A stretch of DNA of 64,000 nt, taken from positions 186,001 to 250,000 of the forward strand of contig JAUZSN010000002.1 of the NCBI GenBank assembly GCA_030949405.1, written 5' to 3'. This document shows positions 1,345-25,616 of the stretch, in pieces. Origin of the DNA: Methylococcales bacterium. Lineage in GTDB: Bacteria; Pseudomonadota; Gammaproteobacteria; Methylococcales; Methylomonadaceae. Numbering within the stretch: the stretch's first letter is position 1; the number at the start of each line of letters is the position of its first letter. A model generated the notes under the pieces. It had not been told where the DNA came from. It saw only the letters and a program-made list of their open reading frames with translations, and ran no database searches. Both the position numbers and the translations under genes were made by a program.

Positions 1345-1645
1345 TTATCAGGTCGAGCGAGACAACGACCTGATAATGCGTCTGTGAGCGGATACCGTAC
1401 GCCAAACTTGCCATCAAGCACCTAAGCGGCGACCTGATAACAAGTCTGTCGAACGGACGAAACTCGCAAACTCTTTCGCCGCTCACAGACGCATTATCAG
1501 GTCGAGCGAGACAACGACCTGATAATGCGTCTGTGAGCGGATACCGTACGCCAAACTTGCCATCAAGCACCTAAGCGGCGACCTGATAACAAGTCTGTCG
1601 AACGGACGAAACTCGCAAACTCTTTCGCCGCTCACAGACGCATTA
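1345..1645 (+). repeat. Tandem duplication of an ORF-less 149-bp integron cassette
   Basis: Two essentially identical 149-base units lie head to tail (1345-1493 and 1494-1642), with identity running three bases further. Each unit begins TTATCAG. The preceding base is the last base of the previous unit, as expected if boundaries are integron recombination points (G/TTRRRY). Within a unit, a perfect 24-base inverted repeat runs from 1367-1390 to 1480-1503. No convincing ORF exists; the two antisense frames are by-products of the repeat. It is not a CRISPR array: only two long units and no spacers. Confidence 0.65.
1435..1499 (+). other. attC-like site of first 149-bp cassette
   Basis: An R''-like TGATAAC (1435-1441) and an R'-like ATTATCA (1493-1499) flank an imperfect stem. 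GTCTGT-C-GAACGG near the left pairs with CCGCTCACAGAC near the right, leaving an unpaired C, the hallmark of an attC L'' box. The R' triplet is ATT rather than the conserved GTT, which is unusual. Confidence 0.5.
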
Positions 1646-1648: not shown

Positions 1649-1704
1649 GTTTTGTGCATCCCACCTAACAATTTTTTTATTTAATTGGATGCGGAGAATT
1701 AATA

Positions 1705-2818
1705 GACTTGTTCTTTAAGAAGAAGTTAATATATCATGTTAAAATTCCATAGGATAGCCGCTAAAAAAGAAAATAAATCTTTTACACCTTCTTTTTTATT
1801 TCTAAACTTGTCAACTAGGCATCTATATCTTTTCATTCCACCGATTACATGCTCAACAATGACTCTTTCACGACTCATCTCTTTGTTTTCTTTTTTTTGA
1901 TTTTCTGTTAATGTTGGGTTTGGATTATGCTTAGATTTATTTGGTTTTTTATGAGGAATATTTACCGAATTAGTTTTATATTCATTATTAAACCCCAAAT
2001 AACCTAAATCAATAAATATATTAAAATTACTAAACCAATTTAATTCTGGATTAAATTCTTTTTAAACATTCCATAATCATGATTTTTACCGGAAAACTAA
2101 CCCCAATATATAAAATTAAATGACCTAAAGAAGCTATAGTGGTATTTTTAATTGTATGCTGTTTTTTTACCACTGTAAAATTCATTTTGTTCTTCATAGT
2201 CACTAGGGCGTTGTACAGCACGCTCTGTAGCATCTATTATCAATGTTTGAACTCCGCCAAAAGCCTGCTGCATTTCTTCAGGGGTTGAAAAACTTGTTGC
2301 AGGTAAAACATTAAATATATCTAACGTCTTTATTAAAATTGGAAATAATTTGTATACATGAGTATGGGCGCATGATTTATTCATATTAAAAGAAAACCCT
2401 AAGTGATCGAAAGTAGAATAGCACTTCATATAATTTAATATAAATAATAATTTGTCTGCGGGTTTTTTTAATGTGCTATCTAAACCACTACCGTATTTTC
2501 TTTCTTTATTTTCATGTTTTTCTTTTTGATCTTCAATAAGGGTCTTTTCAAATAGAGATAATAGTAAAATAAAATGTTCTGTTTTTAATCCTGTTAAAGC
2601 TCTTAACTGTCTATCATCATAAATTCTTGGTAAAATTTCTTTTATTTTCATGTTATACTTTGATTTTTATTTTTTATAGAAATTTATTATAAAGCTTATT
2701 TATTATTTTTAATAATTTAATTTAAAGTTTATTTATTAGGCTGTATCAACTGATTGTGAATGTTATCAAGTATATATAAGCAATTGATTTTAATATATTT
2801 TATTTAGAAGAACAAGTC
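1705..2818 (-). mobile_element. IS5-like insertion sequence, copy 1
   Basis: The element is bounded by inverted repeats GACTTGTTCTT / AAGAACAAGTC and by TA on both sides (1703-1704, 2819-2820), consistent with a 2-base TA target duplication. It is 1114 bases, one shorter than the copy at 8356-9470. It sits in the third cassette, between a GGAG (1693-1696) and the start of the small peptide gene. Confidence 0.85.
1726..2651 (-). pseudogene. IS5-like transposase, frameshifted (copy 1)
   Basis: The N-terminal helix-turn-helix part (from 2651) and the DDE part are in different frames. The first break is at a run of seven A after the YSGKK motif; the second is shortly before the ELNWFSNFNIF segment. 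A third single-base loss unique to this copy follows GVSFP. The DDE features IDATERAVQRP and VIVEHVIGGMKRYR are recognisable. Because the sister copy shares the first two breaks, the element moved while already frameshifted, or depends on slippage or on transposase supplied in trans. Confidence 0.8.
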
Positions 2819-2825
2819 TAATGTT

Positions 2826-2983: not shown

Positions 2984-3053
2984 ATTATTTGCAATCTTAG
3001 AAATTGCAAATAGTTTAATGTAAACAACACTTAACAAAAAAATCAAGCGGACA

Positions 3054-3350
3054 TATATGGTTCGTCCCGTATTGCAAGTAAAGTTTTTTCGTGACATAAA
3101 AAAATAGTGCAGCCATATATCCGGCTTTTAAATGAGGCGCTGAAAGCCCTCTAGCCCTGATGGAATCCGCGCATTTTCTCCTCATCAGCTAAACGACCTC
3201 GAAGGTCTCCGTCCGCTACAGGTTGCTGGAAATGCAGGTGTTACCTTTTATGCCATCACTTAAACTTTATCTACGCAATTCGTTGTAAACTGATCGTTTG
3301 TTCTGTTGCTCGTCTTTAAAAAGTGGATTCGATTTTTCCTAACTAAAATC
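3054..3350 (-). ncRNA. Candidate seekRNA/bridge RNA region of IS1111 element, copy 1
   Basis: About 297 non-coding bases follow the transposase gene, where IS1111-group elements are known to encode their guide RNA. Four short segments match the relevant DNA: CCATATAT (3113-3120) is complementary to the element's left end, GCTTTTAA (3124-3131) to the right target half, ATGGAAT (3160-3166) to the element's right end, and GTCCGCT (3211-3217) to the left target half AGCGGAC. RNA limits and folding were not computed. Confidence 0.55.
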
Positions 3351-4391
3351 CTAAGTACTCTTGATGCAGTAATCTTCTTGCTTGCTCAATACCGCCCATG
3401 CGATACGCGCGTTTTTGTTGGCGATGGCAACTGTGAAAATATTTTCGCCGCGCCGTTCCTTTAAACTGACAATCCATTTATTACGCTTGTCTTCGTATTT
3501 ATGCGCTACCCGTAACATCGAGCGTCCACCGTGAATCAGCAAGGTGCGCAGATAAGTGTCGCCGCGTTTGCTAATCCCTAACAATGTCGGCTTGCCGCCT
3601 GTGGAATGTTGCCTCGGCACCAGCCCTAGCCATGCCGCAAGTTCGCGTCCATTTTTAAACACATTGATGTCGCCAATCGCAGCGATTAAAGCCGTGGCAG
3701 TTAACAGTCCGACACCGGGAATAGTGAGTAATCGTTGGCAGTTTTCATTCTGAGCGCAGACCTGTTTTAACTTGATTTCGATCGAATCAATCCGCTCATT
3801 GAGGTGCTTCATTTCATCGTAAAGCTCTTGCAATAATTCTCGAAATATCGGTGAAAGTTGGTTTTCTGCATCCTCTAGCAACTCAGGAATAATCTTACTG
3901 ACCGAGTGAATGCCTTGCGCAATGATGATGCCATATTCCATCAGCAAGCCGCGAATTTGATTCGCTTGCGCAGTGCGTCGCCCAATCAACTGGCTACGAA
4001 TGCGATGCATACATTGAATATCCTGCTGCTCAACACTTTTACTGGGGACAAAGCGCATCGACTTCCGTTGCACAGCTTCGCAAATTCCTTCCGCATCCAA
4101 GGCATCGCTTTTGTTTGATTTCACATACGGCTTCACAAATTGTGGAGCCATAATTTTGACCGTATGCCCAAATTGAGAGAAAATGCGCTTCCAATAATTC
4201 GCGCCGCCGCAGGCTTCAATGCCAATTAAACACGGCGGCAGATTAGCGATAAAGGCACTCAGCTTGTTGCGTGTGAGTTTCTTTTTCAGACACACGTTAT
4301 CGTCTTCATCCACGCCATGTAGCTGAAAACTATTCTTCGCCAAATCAATCCCTAAGACGGCGATATTTTTGTTTGAATTAACTTTGCTCAT
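3351..4391 (-). CDS. IS110-family transposase, copy 1
   Basis: This is a 346-residue transposase with an N-terminal RuvC-like DEDD domain (GIDLAKNSFQLHG; SDALDAEGIC) and a C-terminal Transposase_20 domain (LLTIPGVGLLTATALIAAIG; AAWLGLVPRQHSTGGK). The start MSKVNSNKN at 4391 is chosen because the DEDD domain begins there; the longer frame runs into the element's own end. It differs from the copy at 11607-12647 by very few residues (for example IFTV versus ISTV). It appears intact. Confidence 0.93.
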   Translation of the reverse strand: MSKVNSNKNIAVLGIDLAKNSFQLHGVDEDDNVCLKKKLTRNKLSAFIANLPPCLIGIEACGGANYWKRIFSQFGHTVKIMAPQFVKPYVKSNKSDALDAEGICEAVQRKSMRFVPSKSVEQQDIQCMHRIRSQLIGRRTAQANQIRGLLMEYGIIIAQGIHSVSKIIPELLEDAENQLSPIFRELLQELYDEMKHLNERIDSIEIKLKQVCAQNENCQRLLTIPGVGLLTATALIAAIGDINVFKNGRELAAWLGLVPRQHSTGGKPTLLGISKRGDTYLRTLLIHGGRSMLRVAHKYEDKRNKWIVSLKERRGENIFTVAIANKNARIAWAVLSKQEDYCIKST

Positions 4392-4495
4392 GACTATGAC
4401 CTCACACTTGTGCTGAAAATGAATAACGGTTATTATCATCCCTTTTAGGGCGGTTGTAAAAGTGGGACGAACCATTCCATTAGCTAAAAGCGTCA

Positions 4496-6369
4496 ATCGG
4501 GTCGGGGTAACGGGATTGCGCCCGTTACCTCTCCCACACCACCGTACATGCGGTTTTCCGCATACGGCGGTTGAATCCAGCAACCTAAGTTACTGCAAGA
4601 TCCGAGGGCGCAAATAACCCATAACGTCTTAAAGTGGAATTGCTTAATACTCTGTGCAAAGCATGACTTTTTGCTATCCGCCATGCACCGCGTGAACTGC
4701 CCGCGATTTTCTGCACTCTAGGCGTTGCACCTAGGCGGCGTAAAGCATTCAGTCTGCCTTTCTTTTTATGCCAGCGTAACCAGAAACATTTTCGCATGTG
4801 GCGGCGTGTCCAGCCTTGCAACCTTTTGATATTCCAAAGATTTTCAGCCAGTTTAAAATAATTCCACCAGCCAATGCTGTATTGTCTCCATTGCTTCACC
4901 AGTTGTTTACTGGTTCGACTTTGCTGTGCATCCCAAAGTTGGCGCACTTTTCCTTTGTATCTTTCGATACTCTTAGGTGAGATTTCTATTTCGGCGTTTT
5001 CGTTAATCCGAAAGCCTAAATATTGTCCGTTCCAAGGTCGTCCTGTTCCACTTTTATCTTGATTGACACTGAGTTTTAGGTGCTTTTCTATCCATTGAGT
5101 GAGACTTTCCAAGACGCGTTTCGCGCTTCTTTCGCTACCGACATAAATACTCACATCGTCCGCATAACGGCAAAAACTCAACCCGCGCGTTTCCAGTTCT
5201 TTGTCCAGTGGGTCTAAATAAATATTCGCTAACAGAGGACTAAGCGGACTGCCTTGCGGCACGCCCTTGCTTCGTCGCTCTACATTGCCATTCAGCATGA
5301 TGCCTGTTTTCAGGTATTTTCTAATAATAGCCAAAACTTCTGGCTCATCAACTTTCTGACTCATTTGATGCAGTAAAATATCGTGATTTACTTCATCGAA
5401 AAATTTGCTAATGTCTATATCGATCACCCAAGTTTTACCTTGTTTGACAAAGGCTTGCGCTTGTTTCACCGCATCATGCGTACTCCGAAACGGTCGATAA
5501 CCGTAACTTGAGTCACTAAAACCGCTATCAAAAATCGTGGTTAATTCTTGCTGTATCGCTTGCTGAATCACACGGTCTTGCACCGTAGGAATCCCCAACA
5601 GCCGTTCGCCCCCATTTGGTTTTGGAATCATCACGCCCAAAACAGGACTTGGAACATACGTTCCCTCGATTAACTTTTCTTCGATTTGCGTTCCATATTG
5701 CTCCCAATGCTGCACAGTCTCAAGAATGCTCTTCCTGTCAATTCCTGCCGCGCCTTTATTGCGTTTAACCGCCTCAAAAGCGATGCCAAAACTTAACCAA
5801 TTGAACATTCTCGCCATCAAACACTTGTTCGTCATTTTCTTTCTCCTTTTTCACCGATTATCTTCGCTTGCACCCCATGGAATTTATTTCTCAAAGAATC
5901 CACTTTGATACTGAATTTCCCACCAGTTAGGTAGTTTATTGCACGCAACAACGCCTGCCTGTTTCAAAGTACTGCTCGCTTCCGATTCGCCTCGTTTGGA
6001 TTAATGAACTAGATTCTTCAGCCCTTCGCTCCACCGCCATTACAGCGGCTTCGACACTACTATGGCATCTGCTGACTTCTTCGATATTCTCATATCAAAG
6101 ACCTCCCTAGGTAATTGCTAAAACTTTCCGCCCGCGCCGCCAAGCTTTACTTGATGTGTCTTTCGGTAACAGTTGGATTTTGTGTTTAACAGCACACTTA
6201 TCGCCCACACCCTGCCTCACTGCTTGTTCGTGTTCCTACGGTCGTGCATTTGCTACGCGCTGCTTTCAGGCTGACCTCACGGTTTCCCCCTTGCGTTTCG
6301 CTACGGTTGTCGTTACATTCCCCGACTACCTCTTTACAGGTAGCAAGTTTTAGCCCATGCTAGGCACAC
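4496..6369 (-). mobile_element. Group IIC (IIC-attC type) intron
   Basis: The 5' end reads GTGTGCCTAGCATGGG (from 6369 leftward) and the 3' end ACCCGAT at 4496. Domain V is visible just after the maturase stop: CCGTATGCGG-AAAA-CCGCATGTACGG. A domain VI hairpin follows (GGTAACGGG/CCCGTTACC). The 5' exon ends in a perfect stem-loop (CTTTTGC/GCAAAAG) of the attC, and the intron is antisense to the cassette genes, as IIC-attC introns are known to be. The 534 bases from 5836 to 6369 carry domains I-III. Confidence 0.85.
4585..5835 (-). CDS. ltrA: Group II intron reverse transcriptase/maturase
   Basis: The 416-residue protein copies intron RNA into DNA and aids splicing. Visible are GAAGIDRKS, the fingers motif GYRPFRSTHDA, GVPQGSPLSPLLANIYLD, the catalytic CRYADDVSIY (YADD) near residue 225, and a C-terminal maturase (X) domain with GWWNYFKLAENLW. 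No HNH endonuclease domain follows, as expected for class C. A GGAGAAAG precedes the ATG. It appears intact. Confidence 0.93.
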   Translation of the reverse strand: MTNKCLMARMFNWLSFGIAFEAVKRNKGAAGIDRKSILETVQHWEQYGTQIEEKLIEGTYVPSPVLGVMIPKPNGGERLLGIPTVQDRVIQQAIQQELTTIFDSGFSDSSYGYRPFRSTHDAVKQAQAFVKQGKTWVIDIDISKFFDEVNHDILLHQMSQKVDEPEVLAIIRKYLKTGIMLNGNVERRSKGVPQGSPLSPLLANIYLDPLDKELETRGLSFCRYADDVSIYVGSERSAKRVLESLTQWIEKHLKLSVNQDKSGTGRPWNGQYLGFRINENAEIEISPKSIERYKGKVRQLWDAQQSRTSKQLVKQWRQYSIGWWNYFKLAENLWNIKRLQGWTRRHMRKCFWLRWHKKKGRLNALRRLGATPRVQKIAGSSRGAWRIAKSHALHRVLSNSTLRRYGLFAPSDLAVT

Positions 6370-6454
6370 TGTCTTTTGCAAAAAGACGCAAAAGCCATGC
6401 CCCTTTTATCCGCCGCTTATTTTGGCGTTAGCCTAAAGAAAAAAAGTCATAGGT

Positions 6455-7398: not shown

Positions 7399-7513
7399 GG
7401 CTAACAATAAAATCCAGCGGACAGTCTAAAGCGTCGTTTTTTTGTGTAAGTCGCAAGCTCCATTTTACACAAAAAACCGCCACTTTAGCCTGTCGCTGAG
7501 CATGGCGTTATGT
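7399..7513 (+). other. attC site (intact)
   Basis: R'' GGCTAAC (7399-7405), L'' CAGCGGACAG, L' CTGTCGCTG and R' GTTATGT (7507-7513). L'' and L' pair except for one extra G, the extrahelical base typical of attC. The inner stem GTGTAA...TTACAC completes the folded site. This uninterrupted site is the reference for the split ones. Confidence 0.85.
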
Positions 7514-7866: not shown

Positions 7867-8355
7867 GTTAAAGAAGTAACCAACGATAACCTTCTCCCTA
7901 AACCTTCTATCTCTTAGTTAAAATAGTGATTACTTTTTGAACTTCGTTAGCTTAAAATGGACAGTTATGCACGGAATTATAGGTAAAAATAGATATGCGA
8001 ATGGGAATTTATGAATTATAAAGAGCAGTTAATCGAACTCTATAATGAAGCAAATATAGGAAAGTCGTATCTTTCAAGTTTAAGTGATAGCACTCAAGCT
8101 AATATTAGAAAGATTTCTGAAAAATGCTTCACTCAAAAAGGTGTTTATACGGTATTAATAACTTTATCTATCTATAAAATATTACATCCAGAGCAAGATA
8201 TACGAAACCATCAAACTCAAATCAAAAATGGTTTTTCTGGTAGGACAATTGATACACAATTTATAACACCAACATTAAAAGAATTAAAACTACCATCAAT
8301 GGCTGAAAGTGGGTGGCTTACACGTTCTTTAGAACAACCATACCCATATACATTA

Positions 8356-9470
8356 GACTTGTTCTTCTAAATAAAATATATTAAAATCAATTGCTTATAT
8401 ATACTTGATAACATTCACAATCAGTTGATACAGCCTAATAAATAAACTTTAAATTAAATTATTAAAAATAATAAATAAGCTTTATAATAAATTTCTATAA
8501 AAAATAAAAATCAAAGTATAACATGAAAATAAAAGAAATTTTACCAAGAATTTATGATGATAGACAGTTAAGAGCTTTAACAGGATTAAAAACAGAACAT
8601 TTTATTTTACTATTATCTCTATTTGAAAAGACCCTTATTGAAGATCAAAAAGAAAAACATGAAAATAAAGAAAGAAAATACGGTAGTGGTTTAGATAGCA
8701 CATTAAAAAAACCCGCAGACAAATTATTATTTATATTAAATTATATGAAGTGCTATTCTACTTTCGATCACTTAGGGTTTTCTTTTAATATGAATAAATC
8801 ATGCGCCCATACTCATGTATACAAATTATTTCCAATTTTAATAAAGACGTTAGATATATTTAATGTTTTACCTGCAACAAGTTTTTCAACCCCTGAAGAA
8901 ATGCAGCAGGCTTTTGGCGGAGTTCAAACATTGATAATAGATGCTACAGAGCGTGCTGTACAACGCCCTAGTGACTATGAAGAACAAAATGAATTTTACA
9001 GTGGTAAAAAAACAGCATACAATTAAAAATACCACTATAGCTTCTTTAGGTCATTTAATTTTATATATTGGGGTTAGTTTTCCGTGTAAAAATCATGATT
9101 ATGGAATGTTTAAAAAGAATTTAATCCAGAATTAAATTGGTTTAGTAATTTTAATATATTTATTGATTTAGGTTATTTGGGGTTTAATAATGAATATAAA
9201 ACTAATTCGGTAAATATTCCTCATAAAAAACCAAATAAATCTAAGCATAATCCAAACCCAACATTAACAGAAAATCAAAAAAAAGAAAACAAAGAGATGA
9301 GTCGTGAAAGAGTCATTGTTGAGCATGTAATCGGTGGAATGAAAAGATATAGATGCCTAGTTGACAAGTTTAGAAATAAAAAAGAAGGTGTAAAAGATTT
9401 ATTTTCTTTTTTAGCGGCTATCCTATGGAATTTTAACATGATATATTAACTTCTTCTTAAAGAACAAGTC
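8356..9470 (+). mobile_element. IS5-like insertion sequence, copy 2
   Basis: It has the same inverted ends (GACTTGTTCTT / AAGAACAAGTC) as the copy at 1705-2818, flanked by TA at 8354-8355 and 9471-9472. It is 1115 bases and lies in opposite orientation to copy 1. It interrupts a restriction endonuclease gene; the host frame is exactly restored on removal, so no other damage has accumulated there. Confidence 0.88.
8523..9449 (+). pseudogene. IS5-like transposase, frameshifted (copy 2)
   Basis: The 167-residue first ORF ends just after YSGKKTAYN at a run of seven A; the next segment (HTIKNTTIASLGHLILYIG) is in another frame and ends at a stop where ELNWFSNFNIF should continue in a third frame, which then runs to 9449. 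Both breaks are shared with copy 1. Confidence 0.8.
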
Positions 9471-10229
9471 TATTAAATTACAATGGAAAAGTAAGTAATA
9501 AGGTAGTAAAAAAAGCTTTTTTAGAAATAATAAATGATATAGAAAATAATAATATAAACCCTAGATATATAATGGTAGAGCTATTACGACAGGTTATTAA
9601 AGCTCAAGAAAAAAATAAAATAATTATTACCCCTCTGAAAAATCCTGAAAGATTAACTATCTTAAAAATAATTGAATCTCTTGATACACAGTTTTCATAT
9701 CATTATGAAGACTTTGGAGGTTCTAAATTGCCAGTAATTGCATTTTATGCCATTTATCAAATAATTATAAATGAAGTTTCAAGATACAGTGACTGCGAAT
9801 TAAAAGACCTAGGTAGTCATACCGCATCAGACAGAACATCAAAAAGCTCAGGCGATATAGAGTTGTTTAAGAATTCAGTTTTATTCGAGTCCATTGAAAT
9901 AAAACTAGATAAAGAAATTGATGCAAATATATTGCGAATTGCAGAAGAGAAAATAATAAGATATAACCCTCAAAGATATTACATATTGTCATATTTCCCA
10001 GCTAAAAAAAGTGAAATTAACCAAATTAATGAAGTTATAGAGCGAGTAAAAGAAAAACATGGATGCCAAATCGTAATTAATGGGGTTTTACCTACTTTAA
10101 AATACTACTTAAGATTGGTATCTGATTTAAATCTATTTATTACGTTATACTCCTCTTTAATTCAGGATGACTCTGAATTGAAAGCTTGCCATAAAGAAAA
10201 ATGGAATGAATTAATGTTGAGGTTAGAAC

Positions 10230-11363
10230 ATGCCTTATAAATTTATAGATTTATTTTCAGGTATAGGTGGCTTTAGGCAAGGCTTTGAAAAACAAGGCTT
10301 TGAATGTGTGTTTTCTTCGGAAATGGATACTCATGCTCAAGATATGTATTGTAAAAATTTTGGTGAAAAACCATTTGGAGATATTACACAAATAAAAGAG
10401 TCTGAAATTCCTAAATTTGATATTTTATTGGCTGGTTTTCCTTGTCAGCCATTTAGTATTGCAGGTGATAAAAAGGGGTTTAATGACACACGGGGAACAT
10501 TATTTTTTGATATTTCTAGGGTTATTAAATACCATAGCCCTAAAGTAGTTGTTTTAGAAAATGTGAAGCATTTTAAAAATCATGATAAGGGTAGAACTTT
10601 AAAAACAGTTTTAAAAATATTAAAAGATATGGGCTACTCAACTAATTGGGAGCTTTTGAACGCTAAAGATTTTGGTGTCCCTCAAAATAGGGAAAGAACT
10701 ATTATTGTGGGAGCTAAAAATGGTATTGAATTTGATTTTTCTAAATTAAAAACATCACCATCACCTAAAATTTCTGATATTTTAGAATCAAGTCGAGATG
10801 ACTTTGAATACCTTGATGAATCTGAATATACATTAATAAAAACGCCTAAAAAACAATTGTCTGGTCTTATATTTTCTGGCTATAGAAACAAAAAAATAAG
10901 GAAAAATGGTGTTAGGGAAAACACGGAGCATTTATCAAGGGTCCATAAACAGCCGAATAGAATTTATTCTTCTGAAGGAACTCACCCAACACTCTCTTCA
11001 CAAGAGCCTACAGGGCGATATTTTATATATCATAATGGCAAAGTTAGAAAATTAACTTTACTTGAATGCTATCGCTTAATGGGGTTTCCAGATGATTTCA
11101 AAAAAATTGGAACTACATCGAAACAGTATAACAGGGTCGGTAATTCAATTGTTGTACCTATGGTTATTGAAATAGCAAAAGAAGTTAATAATCAATTATT
11201 TAACAAGTCATTCGAGTTAAATTATCAGCCTAACCCTGAACAAATGAGTTTGTTTGAGCCTGCAGGTGAATATGAAATTAAAACACATAACAAAAAAATC
11301 CAGCGGACATATATGGTTCGTCCCGTATTGCAAGTAAAGTTTTTTCGTGACATAAAAAAATAG
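10230..11363 (+). CDS. DNA (cytosine-5)-methyltransferase
   Basis: The protein methylates C5 of cytosine in a specific site and protects host DNA. Motifs in order: I FIDLFSGIGGF (residues 5-15), IV GFPCQPFS with the catalytic Cys, VI VLENVKHF, VIII PQNRERTIIVGA, the variable target-recognition region, IX/X CYRLMGFPDDF and RVGNSIVVPMV. Its start overlaps the broken restriction gene. The final ~20 residues (from about 11310) are read from the IS1111 element; upstream the frame runs into the attC, so the original C-terminus is altered. Activity is probably unaffected because motif X is complete. Confidence 0.92.
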   Translation: MPYKFIDLFSGIGGFRQGFEKQGFECVFSSEMDTHAQDMYCKNFGEKPFGDITQIKESEIPKFDILLAGFPCQPFSIAGDKKGFNDTRGTLFFDISRVIKYHSPKVVVLENVKHFKNHDKGRTLKTVLKILKDMGYSTNWELLNAKDFGVPQNRERTIIVGAKNGIEFDFSKLKTSPSPKISDILESSRDDFEYLDESEYTLIKTPKKQLSGLIFSGYRNKKIRKNGVRENTEHLSRVHKQPNRIYSSEGTHPTLSSQEPTGRYFIYHNGKVRKLTLLECYRLMGFPDDFKKIGTTSKQYNRVGNSIVVPMVIEIAKEVNNQLFNKSFELNYQPNPEQMSLFEPAGEYEIKTHNKKIQRTYMVRPVLQVKFFRDIKK

Positions 11364-11606
11364 TGCAGCCATATATCCGGCTTTTAAATGAGGCGCTGAA
11401 AGCCCTCTAGCCCTGATGGAATCCGCGCATTTTCTCCTCATCAGCTAAACGACCTCGAAGGTCTCCGTCCGCTACAGGTTGCTGGAAATGCAGGTGTTAC
11501 CTTTTATGCCATCACTTAAACTTTATCTACGCAATTCGTTGTAAACTGATCGTTTGTTCTGTTGCTCGTCTTTAAAAAGTGGATTCGATTTTTCCTAACT
11601 AAAATC
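11310..11606 (-). ncRNA. Candidate seekRNA/bridge RNA region of IS1111 element, copy 2
   Basis: The non-coding end of the element repeats that of copy 1. GCTTTTAA (11380-11387) and GTCCGCT (11467-11473) are complementary to the two halves of the target, here AGCGGACA / GTTAAAAGC. The guide role is inference from family knowledge plus these matches. Confidence 0.5.
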
Positions 11607-12647
11607 CTAAGTACTCTTGATGCAGTAATCTTCTTGCTTGCTCAATACCGCCCATGCGATACGCGCGTTTTTGTTGGCGATGGCAACTGTGGAAATATTT
11701 TCGCCGCGTCGTTCCTTTAAACTGACAATCCATTTATTACGCTTGTCTTCGTATTTATGCGCTACCCGTAACATCGAGCGTCCACCGTGAATCAGCAAGG
11801 TGCGCAGATAAGTGTCGCCGCGTTTGCTAATCCCTAATAATGTCGGCTTGCCGCCTGTGGAATGTTGCCTCGGCACCAGCCCTAGCCATGCCGCGAGTTC
11901 GCGTCCATTTTTAAACACATTGATGTCGCCAATCGCAGCGATTAAAGCCGTGGCAGTTAACAGTCCGACACCGGGAATAGTGAGTAATCGTTGGCAGTTT
12001 TCATTCTGAGCGCAGACCTGTTTTAACTTGATTTCGATCGAATCAATCCGCTCATTGAGGTGCTTCATTTCATCGTAAAGCTCTTGCAATAATTCTCGAA
12101 ATATCGGTGAAAGTTGGTTTTCTGCATCCTCTAGCAACTCAGGAATAATCTTACTGACCGAGTGAATGCCTTGCGCAATGATGATGCCATATTCCATCAG
12201 CAAGCCGCGAATTTGATTCGCTTGCGCAGTGCGTCGCCCAATCAACTGGCTACGAATGCGATGCATACATTGAATATCCTGCTGCTCAACACTTTTACTG
12301 GGGACAAAGCGCATCGACTTCCGTTGCACAGCTTCGCAAATTCCTTCCGCATCCAAGGCATCGCTTTTGTTTGATTTCACATACGGCTTCACAAATTGTG
12401 GAGCCATAATTTTGACCGTATGCCCAAATTGAGAGAAAATGCGCTTCCAATAATTCGCGCCGCCGCAGGCTTCAATGCCAATTAAACACGGCGGCAGATT
12501 AGCGATAAAGGCACTCAGCTTGTTGCGTGTGAGTTTCTTTTTCAGACACACGTTATCGTCTTCATCCACGCCATGTAGCTGAAAACTATTCTTCGCCAAA
12601 TCAATCCCTAAGACGGCGATATTTTTGTTTGAATTAACTTTGCTCAT
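11607..12647 (-). CDS. IS110-family transposase, copy 2
   Basis: A 346-residue DEDD transposase beginning MSKVNSNKNIAVLGIDLAK, with SDALDAEGIC and the C-terminal TIPGVGLLTATALIAAIG and GLVPRQHSTGGK motifs. It appears intact and is a near-duplicate of 3351-4391, implying very recent movement. Confidence 0.93.
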   Translation of the reverse strand: MSKVNSNKNIAVLGIDLAKNSFQLHGVDEDDNVCLKKKLTRNKLSAFIANLPPCLIGIEACGGANYWKRIFSQFGHTVKIMAPQFVKPYVKSNKSDALDAEGICEAVQRKSMRFVPSKSVEQQDIQCMHRIRSQLIGRRTAQANQIRGLLMEYGIIIAQGIHSVSKIIPELLEDAENQLSPIFRELLQELYDEMKHLNERIDSIEIKLKQVCAQNENCQRLLTIPGVGLLTATALIAAIGDINVFKNGRELAAWLGLVPRQHSTGGKPTLLGISKRGDTYLRTLLIHGGRSMLRVAHKYEDKRNKWIVSLKERRGENISTVAIANKNARIAWAVLSKQEDYCIKST

Positions 12648-12846
12648 GACTATGACCTCACACTTGTGCTGAAAATGAATAACGGTTATTATCATCCCTT
12701 TTAGGGCGGTTGTAAAAGTGGGACGAACCATTCCATTAGTTAAAAGCGGCGTTTCGCTTCGCTACACTCTGCTTTTAACTGCCGCTGATGCGGGTGTTAA
12801 GTTTCAAAATAACATTCAACAATTTCACTAATTAAGGAAAATCGTA

Positions 12847-25430: not shown

Positions 25431-25616
25431 GTACAATTTATAATCGGGGTAGCCAAGGGTATTTCACCCTCAGCCCCCACAACACCCTGCGTGCGGATCC
25501 GCACAGGGCATTTCACTAACCGTAATGACACTTAGGAATGCGGATTTAATAAAACCCAAAAATTAATAAATTATATTAGTTGGTAACAAGCTTTGAATCA
25601 AGTATGCTCTATTGTT

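What the first reader, a model, noticed from the sequence alone, without database searches (positions are those of the whole stretch)
3029..6433. One attC hit twice: IS1111-type element and group IIC intron nested in the same recombination site
The left arm of an attC is interrupted by an IS110-family element. Thirteen bases further the same attC is interrupted by a group IIC intron lying antisense to the cassettes. Both element classes are known to target attC, but finding both in one site is striking. The site is now over 3.4 kb and should be dead for recombination, freezing the cassettes on either side.
Basis: partly seen in the sequence, partly recalled or inferred. Interest (0 to 1): 0.8.

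Follow-up and report, generated by a model that had tools for sequence, protein, structure and literature searches.

The report
One attC interrupted by two elements
In a relative of methane-eating bacteria, one gene-cassette recombination site has been broken twice, 13 bases apart, by two unrelated RNA-guided jumping elements; the intron is the more unusual one, because it comes from a lineage that normally lands beside other DNA hairpins and it enters the site at a place where the usual site-hunting introns do not.

Summary
An IS1111-type element (3054-4482) and a group IIC intron (4496-6369, antisense) interrupt one attC, 13 bp apart. The rejoined 100 nt folds as an attC (-28.2 kcal/mol, z -6.5), and an uninterrupted counterpart, 94 of 96 bases identical across both junctions, exists in a related genome. 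The same genome holds IS-only, intron-only and exact intron-empty attC sites. The IS carries a predicted seekRNA whose two variable segments match the two target halves; relatives with other guides sit at other targets. The intron is not a member of the known IIC-attC lineage (R'', TTGT/T), which is also present in this genome at other attCs. It groups with introns that insert 3 nt after palindromic hairpins at CCTA. It uses the attC's own terminal hairpin at RRCA/T, and its EBS1 loop has changed from UAGG to UGUU. Given about 20 attCs and two attC-directed elements, a double hit is not improbable (about 0.4). The 'frozen cassettes' reading is plausible, but no full integrase gene was found, so the array is probably immobile anyway. 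Neither the order of insertion nor loss of recombination was shown.

The parts
3029..3053 (+). attC left arm: R'' (ACTTAAC, 3029-3035) and L'' (AAGCGGACA)
   Evidence: sequence; pairs with the right arm in the rejoined fold; 98% match to the intact attC in G174
3054..4482 (-). IS1111-type insertion sequence; subterminal inverted repeats 3057-3068 and 4464-4475
   Evidence: 6 copies in own genome, flanks compared, transposase families
3351..4391 (-). transposase gene tnp (346 aa, DEDD)
   Evidence: PF01548, PF02371, NF033542
3054..3350 (-). non-coding region downstream of tnp holding the predicted seekRNA
   Evidence: position as described for the IS1111 family (PMC11187229); alignment with relatives
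3211..3217 (-). predicted guide segment 1, AGCGGAC (left half of the target)
   Evidence: sits in the variable segment after conserved AACCTG
3186..3193 (-). predicted guide segment 2, TTTAGCTG (reverse complement of target right half CAGCTAAA)
4483..4495 (+). 13 bp of attC left between IS and intron (GCTAAAAGCGTCA)
   Evidence: sequence; continuous with both arms in G174
4496..6369 (-). group IIC intron, full length
   Evidence: Rfam hits; identical second copy; exact empty allele L164
4585..5835 (-). intron-encoded reverse transcriptase/maturase, 416 aa
   Evidence: PF00078, PF08388, TIGR04416
6188..6191 (-). EBS1 loop TGTT (GTGTGC-TGTT-AAACAC); relatives have TAGG
   Evidence: alignment
6370..6433 (+). 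attC right part: terminal hairpin next to the intron, then L' and R' (GTTAGCC 6427-6433)
   Evidence: folds; IS-only homologues in the same genome

Best explanation
A normal integron attC was hit at two separate places by two RNA-guided elements. The IS1111-type element used a seekRNA whose two short segments match the two halves of the L'' arm (AGCGGACA|GCTAAA) and inserted there. A group IIC intron used its usual rule (a DNA hairpin, then 3 nt, then a short IBS1-EBS1 pairing), with the attC's terminal hairpin as the hairpin and EBS1 UGUU pairing to RRCA/T, and entered 13 bp away. Neither insertion destroys the other's target, so both can occupy one site; the order is not known, but IS first then intron is feasible. 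Shown: anatomy, exact ends, intact and singly hit counterparts. Inferred: RNA guidance, the EBS1 change as the cause of re-aiming, loss of recombination. The intron is a palindrome-hairpin-type IIC intron re-aimed at attC, not a member of the IIC-attC lineage.
For: Intact counterpart 94/96 across both junctions. Fold z -6.5. Same-type attC right halves with the IS but no intron in own genome, L005 and L009. Intron without this IS at L001, and its exact empty allele L164 with 99.2-99.3% identical flanks; both were already broken in the left arm by an IS66-like element, so the intron did not need an intact attC there. Predicted guide segments lie in the variable part of a conserved scaffold; relatives carry other guides matching their own targets, best in L121 (9 bases) and L140 (7); order-aware chance for the window 0.00085 in simple Markov shuffles. 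All seven intron relatives inserted at CCTA carry EBS1 TAGG; the window intron carries TGTT and sits at GACA/T and GGCA/T, 3 nt after a hairpin in both. IEP tree: window with Methylococcaceae hairpin-type introns 100/99, TTGT-type introns apart at 100/100.
Against: Only two insertion sites of this intron are known, both in one genome. IBS1-EBS1 pairing is 4 nt with one or two G-U wobbles. One relative (L024) does not fit the EBS1-IBS1 rule. Two of the six IS copies lie outside attC (L006, L008), so the IS guide is tolerant or partly matched, and several relatives' guide matches (L124, L125, L126) are no better than cross-matches. No RNA was observed.
Confidence: 0.85

Rival explanations
1. The site is a chimera: homologous recombination between IS copies joined the left half of one attC to the intron-bearing right half of another, so no single attC was hit twice.
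For: IS-mediated exchange has happened in this genome: L005 joins the left arm of the methylase cassette (as in the window at 11310) to a right half like that of the window site. The inner arms of the window site are imperfectly complementary.
Against: One intact attC in G174 has the same left arm, 13-bp segment and right arm (94/96), with the same imperfect inner arms; the L boxes pair natively (AAGCGG/CCGCTT).
Confidence: 0.08
2. The intron is an ordinary group IIC-attC intron that happened to land at a secondary position.
For: Group IIC, antisense to the cassettes, in an attC bottom strand; the literature says 'the majority' of such introns use TTGT/T (PMC7923331).
Against: IEP phylogeny excludes it from the TTGT clade; nearest relatives (about 70% identity) insert after palindromes at CCTA; both copies use the same non-R'' position; true TTGT-type introns with a different 5' end sit at R'' of three other attCs in this genome.
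Confidence: 0.05
3. Intron first, IS second (the double hit itself stands).
For: The 13 bp that remain hold the right half of the predicted IS target.
Against: Weak: intron copies are identical over 1874 nt while IS copies differ at 0-5 positions of 1429, and the intron is known to enter an attC already broken by another IS (L164 to L001).
Confidence: 0.3

Closest known systems
IS1111-attC insertion sequences (ISPst6, ISKpn4, ISPa25, ISPa21)
   Same: IS1111-type DEDD transposase, subterminal inverted repeats, non-coding region downstream of tnp with two target-matching segments in the same order, insertion in attC
   Different: Lies in the L'' arm of a methanotroph-type attC, whereas ISKpn4/ISPst6 are described as targeting 'one end' of attC; two of six copies are outside attC; nearest relatives found (about 70% aa) sit at non-attC targets. 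Identity to the named elements was not measured.
Group IIC-attC introns (S.ma.I2 type)
   Same: Group IIC, attC bottom strand, antisense to cassettes, hairpin upstream of a short IBS1
   Different: Position (base of the terminal hairpin, not R''), IBS1/IBS3 (RRCA/T, not TTGT/T), 5' end sequence, phylogeny, about 43% IEP identity to one of them
Hairpin-targeting group IIC introns of Methylobacter and Thiocystis (this work)
   Same: IEP 57-71% identical, insertion 3 nt after an inverted repeat
   Different: EBS1 TAGG with CCTA target, versus TGTT with RRCA in attC
Non-IIC-attC group IIC intron in an attC of Enterobacter cloacae (cited in PMC7923331)
   Same: A IIC intron outside the attC lineage found in an attC
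   Different: There in the top strand and same orientation as the cassettes; here bottom strand, antisense

Membership tests
IS1111 family | DEDD transposase of IS110/IS1111 type | tested here: met
IS1111 family | subterminal inverted repeats and non-coding region downstream of tnp | tested here: met
IS1111 family | seekRNA segments matching both halves of the target, in the IS1111 order | tested here: met
   prediction only, no RNA observed
IS1111-attC group | insertion in attC sites | tested here: inconclusive
   4 of 6 copies in attC, 2 not; phylogeny against ISPst6/ISKpn4 not run
group IIC introns | group II RNA and class C IEP, insertion after a DNA hairpin with short IBS1-EBS1 | tested here: met
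   Rfam and Pfam hits plus hairpin 3 nt upstream in both copies
group IIC-attC lineage | IEP inside the IIC-attC clade | tested here: not met
   TTGT-type clade 100/100, window elsewhere
group IIC-attC lineage | insertion at R'' TTGT/T | tested here: not met
   GACA/T and GGCA/T at the terminal hairpin
attC site | R''/R' boxes, foldable bottom strand with extrahelical bases | tested here: met
attC site | recombination by IntI | not testable with these tools
   no full integrase gene found in the genome

The most novel reading that the evidence does not exclude
A lineage of palindrome-hairpin group IIC introns has independently acquired attC targeting by a change of EBS1 from UAGG to UGUU, using the attC terminal hairpin instead of the whole stem, and needs only that hairpin. 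In the same genome an IS1111 element carries an attC-matching seekRNA. attC sites would then act as a shared sink that draws unrelated RNA-guided elements by separate guide changes.
Probability: 0.55. Interest if true: 0.62.

Novelty: new variant of a known kind. Interest (0 to 1): 0.5.

Why it matters
IS1111 elements and group IIC introns in attC were each known. The new points are one site holding both, with the uninterrupted counterpart in hand, and a IIC intron from the hairpin lineage that reached attC at a new position with a changed EBS1. The exact empty and filled pair (L164/L001) and the TAGG/TGTT contrast make re-aiming of group IIC introns directly testable in a retrohoming assay. 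It also shows that in a genome without a complete integron integrase gene roughly half of the attCs found carry an element.

Tried and rejected
Chance fold: rejected by z -6.5 and by the natural intact site. Canonical IIC-attC intron: rejected by tree and position. Active integrase in the genome: only two N-terminal relics (39-47 model positions) and one weak C-terminal tyrosine-recombinase match were found. Double hits in other genomes: none of the loci fetched around intron relatives carries an IS of this type near the intron, but the scan was not exhaustive. Insertion order from divergence: intron copies 0/1874 differences, IS copies 0-5/1429; not decisive. A first translation of tnp was out of frame and was redone. 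Papers on both elements in one attC: none found in the held open-access library; Tetu and Holmes 2008 is not held, so prior reports there cannot be excluded. The estimate of overlap (about 0.4) is my own arithmetic on the counts.

Full report
Observation. The left arm of an attC (3029-3053) is followed by an IS1111-type element (3054-4482), 13 bp of attC (4483-4495), a group IIC intron on the - strand (4496-6369) and the rest of the attC (6370-6433). The element has a DEDD/Transposase_20 transposase and 12-bp subterminal repeats; six copies exist in the genome. The intron has Rfam D1-D4 and domain V matches, an intact RT/maturase and an identical second copy.

Is it one attC? With the two elements left out in silico, the joined bottom strand folds at -28.2 kcal/mol, z -6.5, none of 200 shuffles as good; the attC at 7400 gives z -7.2 in the same test. 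Seven attCs of this genome, three of them joined in this way, show compensating changes between the arms (seven sequences only, and the structure was drawn from them). The decisive test is natural: a search of 201 genomes of the family found an uninterrupted attC in G174 that matches 94 of 96 bases across both junctions, and close relatives in G075, G138 and G030. The arms therefore belong to one site type. A residual doubt is that IS copies do recombine here: L005 joins the left arm of the methylase cassette to a right half like this one.

Single hits. L005 and L009 hold the IS in attCs with a very similar right half and no intron; L001 holds the intron in an attC without this IS. L164 is the exact empty form of L001: GGCA|TGACGC with 99.2-99.3% identical flanks, which proves the intron ends. 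Both L001 and L164 were already cut in the left arm by an IS66-like element (family assigned by eye from the ORFs), so this intron does not need a whole attC.

The IS. In IS1111 elements a seekRNA from the region downstream of tnp carries two short segments matching the two target strands (PMC11187229). The region 3054-3350 contains AGCGGAC and, 24 nt further, TTTAGCTG, matching AGCGGACA| and |GCTAAA in that order; simple first-order Markov shuffles give this in 0.085% of trials. In an alignment with relatives these are the variable segments in a conserved scaffold, and relatives carry segments that match their own, different targets, clearly for L121 and L140 and weakly or not for L124, L125 and L126. 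No RNA was seen.

The intron. Its nearest relatives (Methylobacter, a Methylococcaceae MAG, Thiocystis, and others) sit 3 nt after palindromic hairpins at CCTA and have EBS1 loop TAGG. The window intron has TGTT and sits 3 nt after the attC terminal hairpin at GACA/T here and GGCA/T at L001. L024 does not fit the rule. The known IIC-attC lineage inserts at R'' TTGT/T (PMC7923331); introns of that kind, with a different 5' end, occupy three other attCs of this same genome. An IEP tree separates the two groups with full support and places the window intron with the hairpin type. The difference in EBS1 is shown; that it caused the re-aiming is inferred.

How it works and in which order. The IS target lies in the outer arm and the intron target at the base of the terminal hairpin, so neither insertion removes the other's target. 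After the IS alone the hairpin still folds at -21.5 kcal/mol. Either order is possible; the L164/L001 pair shows that the intron can enter an attC already cut by an IS.

How surprising? The attC model found about 12 attCs at E below 0.01, three of which carry a TTGT-type intron at R''; adding the interrupted ones gives about 20. With four IS and two intron insertions among them, at least one overlap is expected in about 40% of random draws (my arithmetic). The double hit is therefore a natural result of shared targeting rather than a special event.

Freezing of cassettes. Splitting the arms by 3.3 kb should prevent normal folding, and others have suggested that IS1111-group insertions disrupt attC, noting little experimental evidence (PMC11616780). 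Here no full-length integron integrase was found, only two N-terminal remnants, one of them next to the main array at 2.705-2.723 Mb. The array is probably immobile with or without these insertions.

Host.

Noticed in passing
window 1699-2824 and 8350-9476: Near-identical copies (100% and 99% over the two stretches) of an IS with an HTH_Tnp_4 transposase lie in inverted orientation about 5.5 kb apart, flanking the double-hit attC; the segment between them could invert.
   Followed up: no
window 11310-12738: Second IS1111 copy of the window, in the attC of a C5-methylase cassette; the methylase ORF runs through the attC arm into the IS. The ORF before it (9572-10240) has no family hit and may be its restriction partner.
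   Followed up: partly
L005 (C2:2706850-2708278): Chimeric attC: left arm and about 110 bp of the methylase cassette joined through the IS to another right half, a sign of recombination between IS copies.
   Followed up: partly
L006, L008: Two IS copies sit outside attC, at GAGACA|GCTAATG and GGACACA|GCGTAAG, showing tolerance of the guide.
   Followed up: partly
own genome C2:94812, 1226830, 2712213: 5' ends of TTGT-type IIC introns at R'' of three other attCs; the one at 1226830 is cut short within about 100 bases by other sequence.
   Followed up: partly
own genome C2:2724071 and 167461: Two integron integrase relics, N-terminal only.
   Followed up: partly
window 25443-25513: Domain V match of a further group II intron without a nearby complete intron.
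   Followed up: no
window 1345-1642: Two identical 149-bp tandem copies.
   Followed up: no
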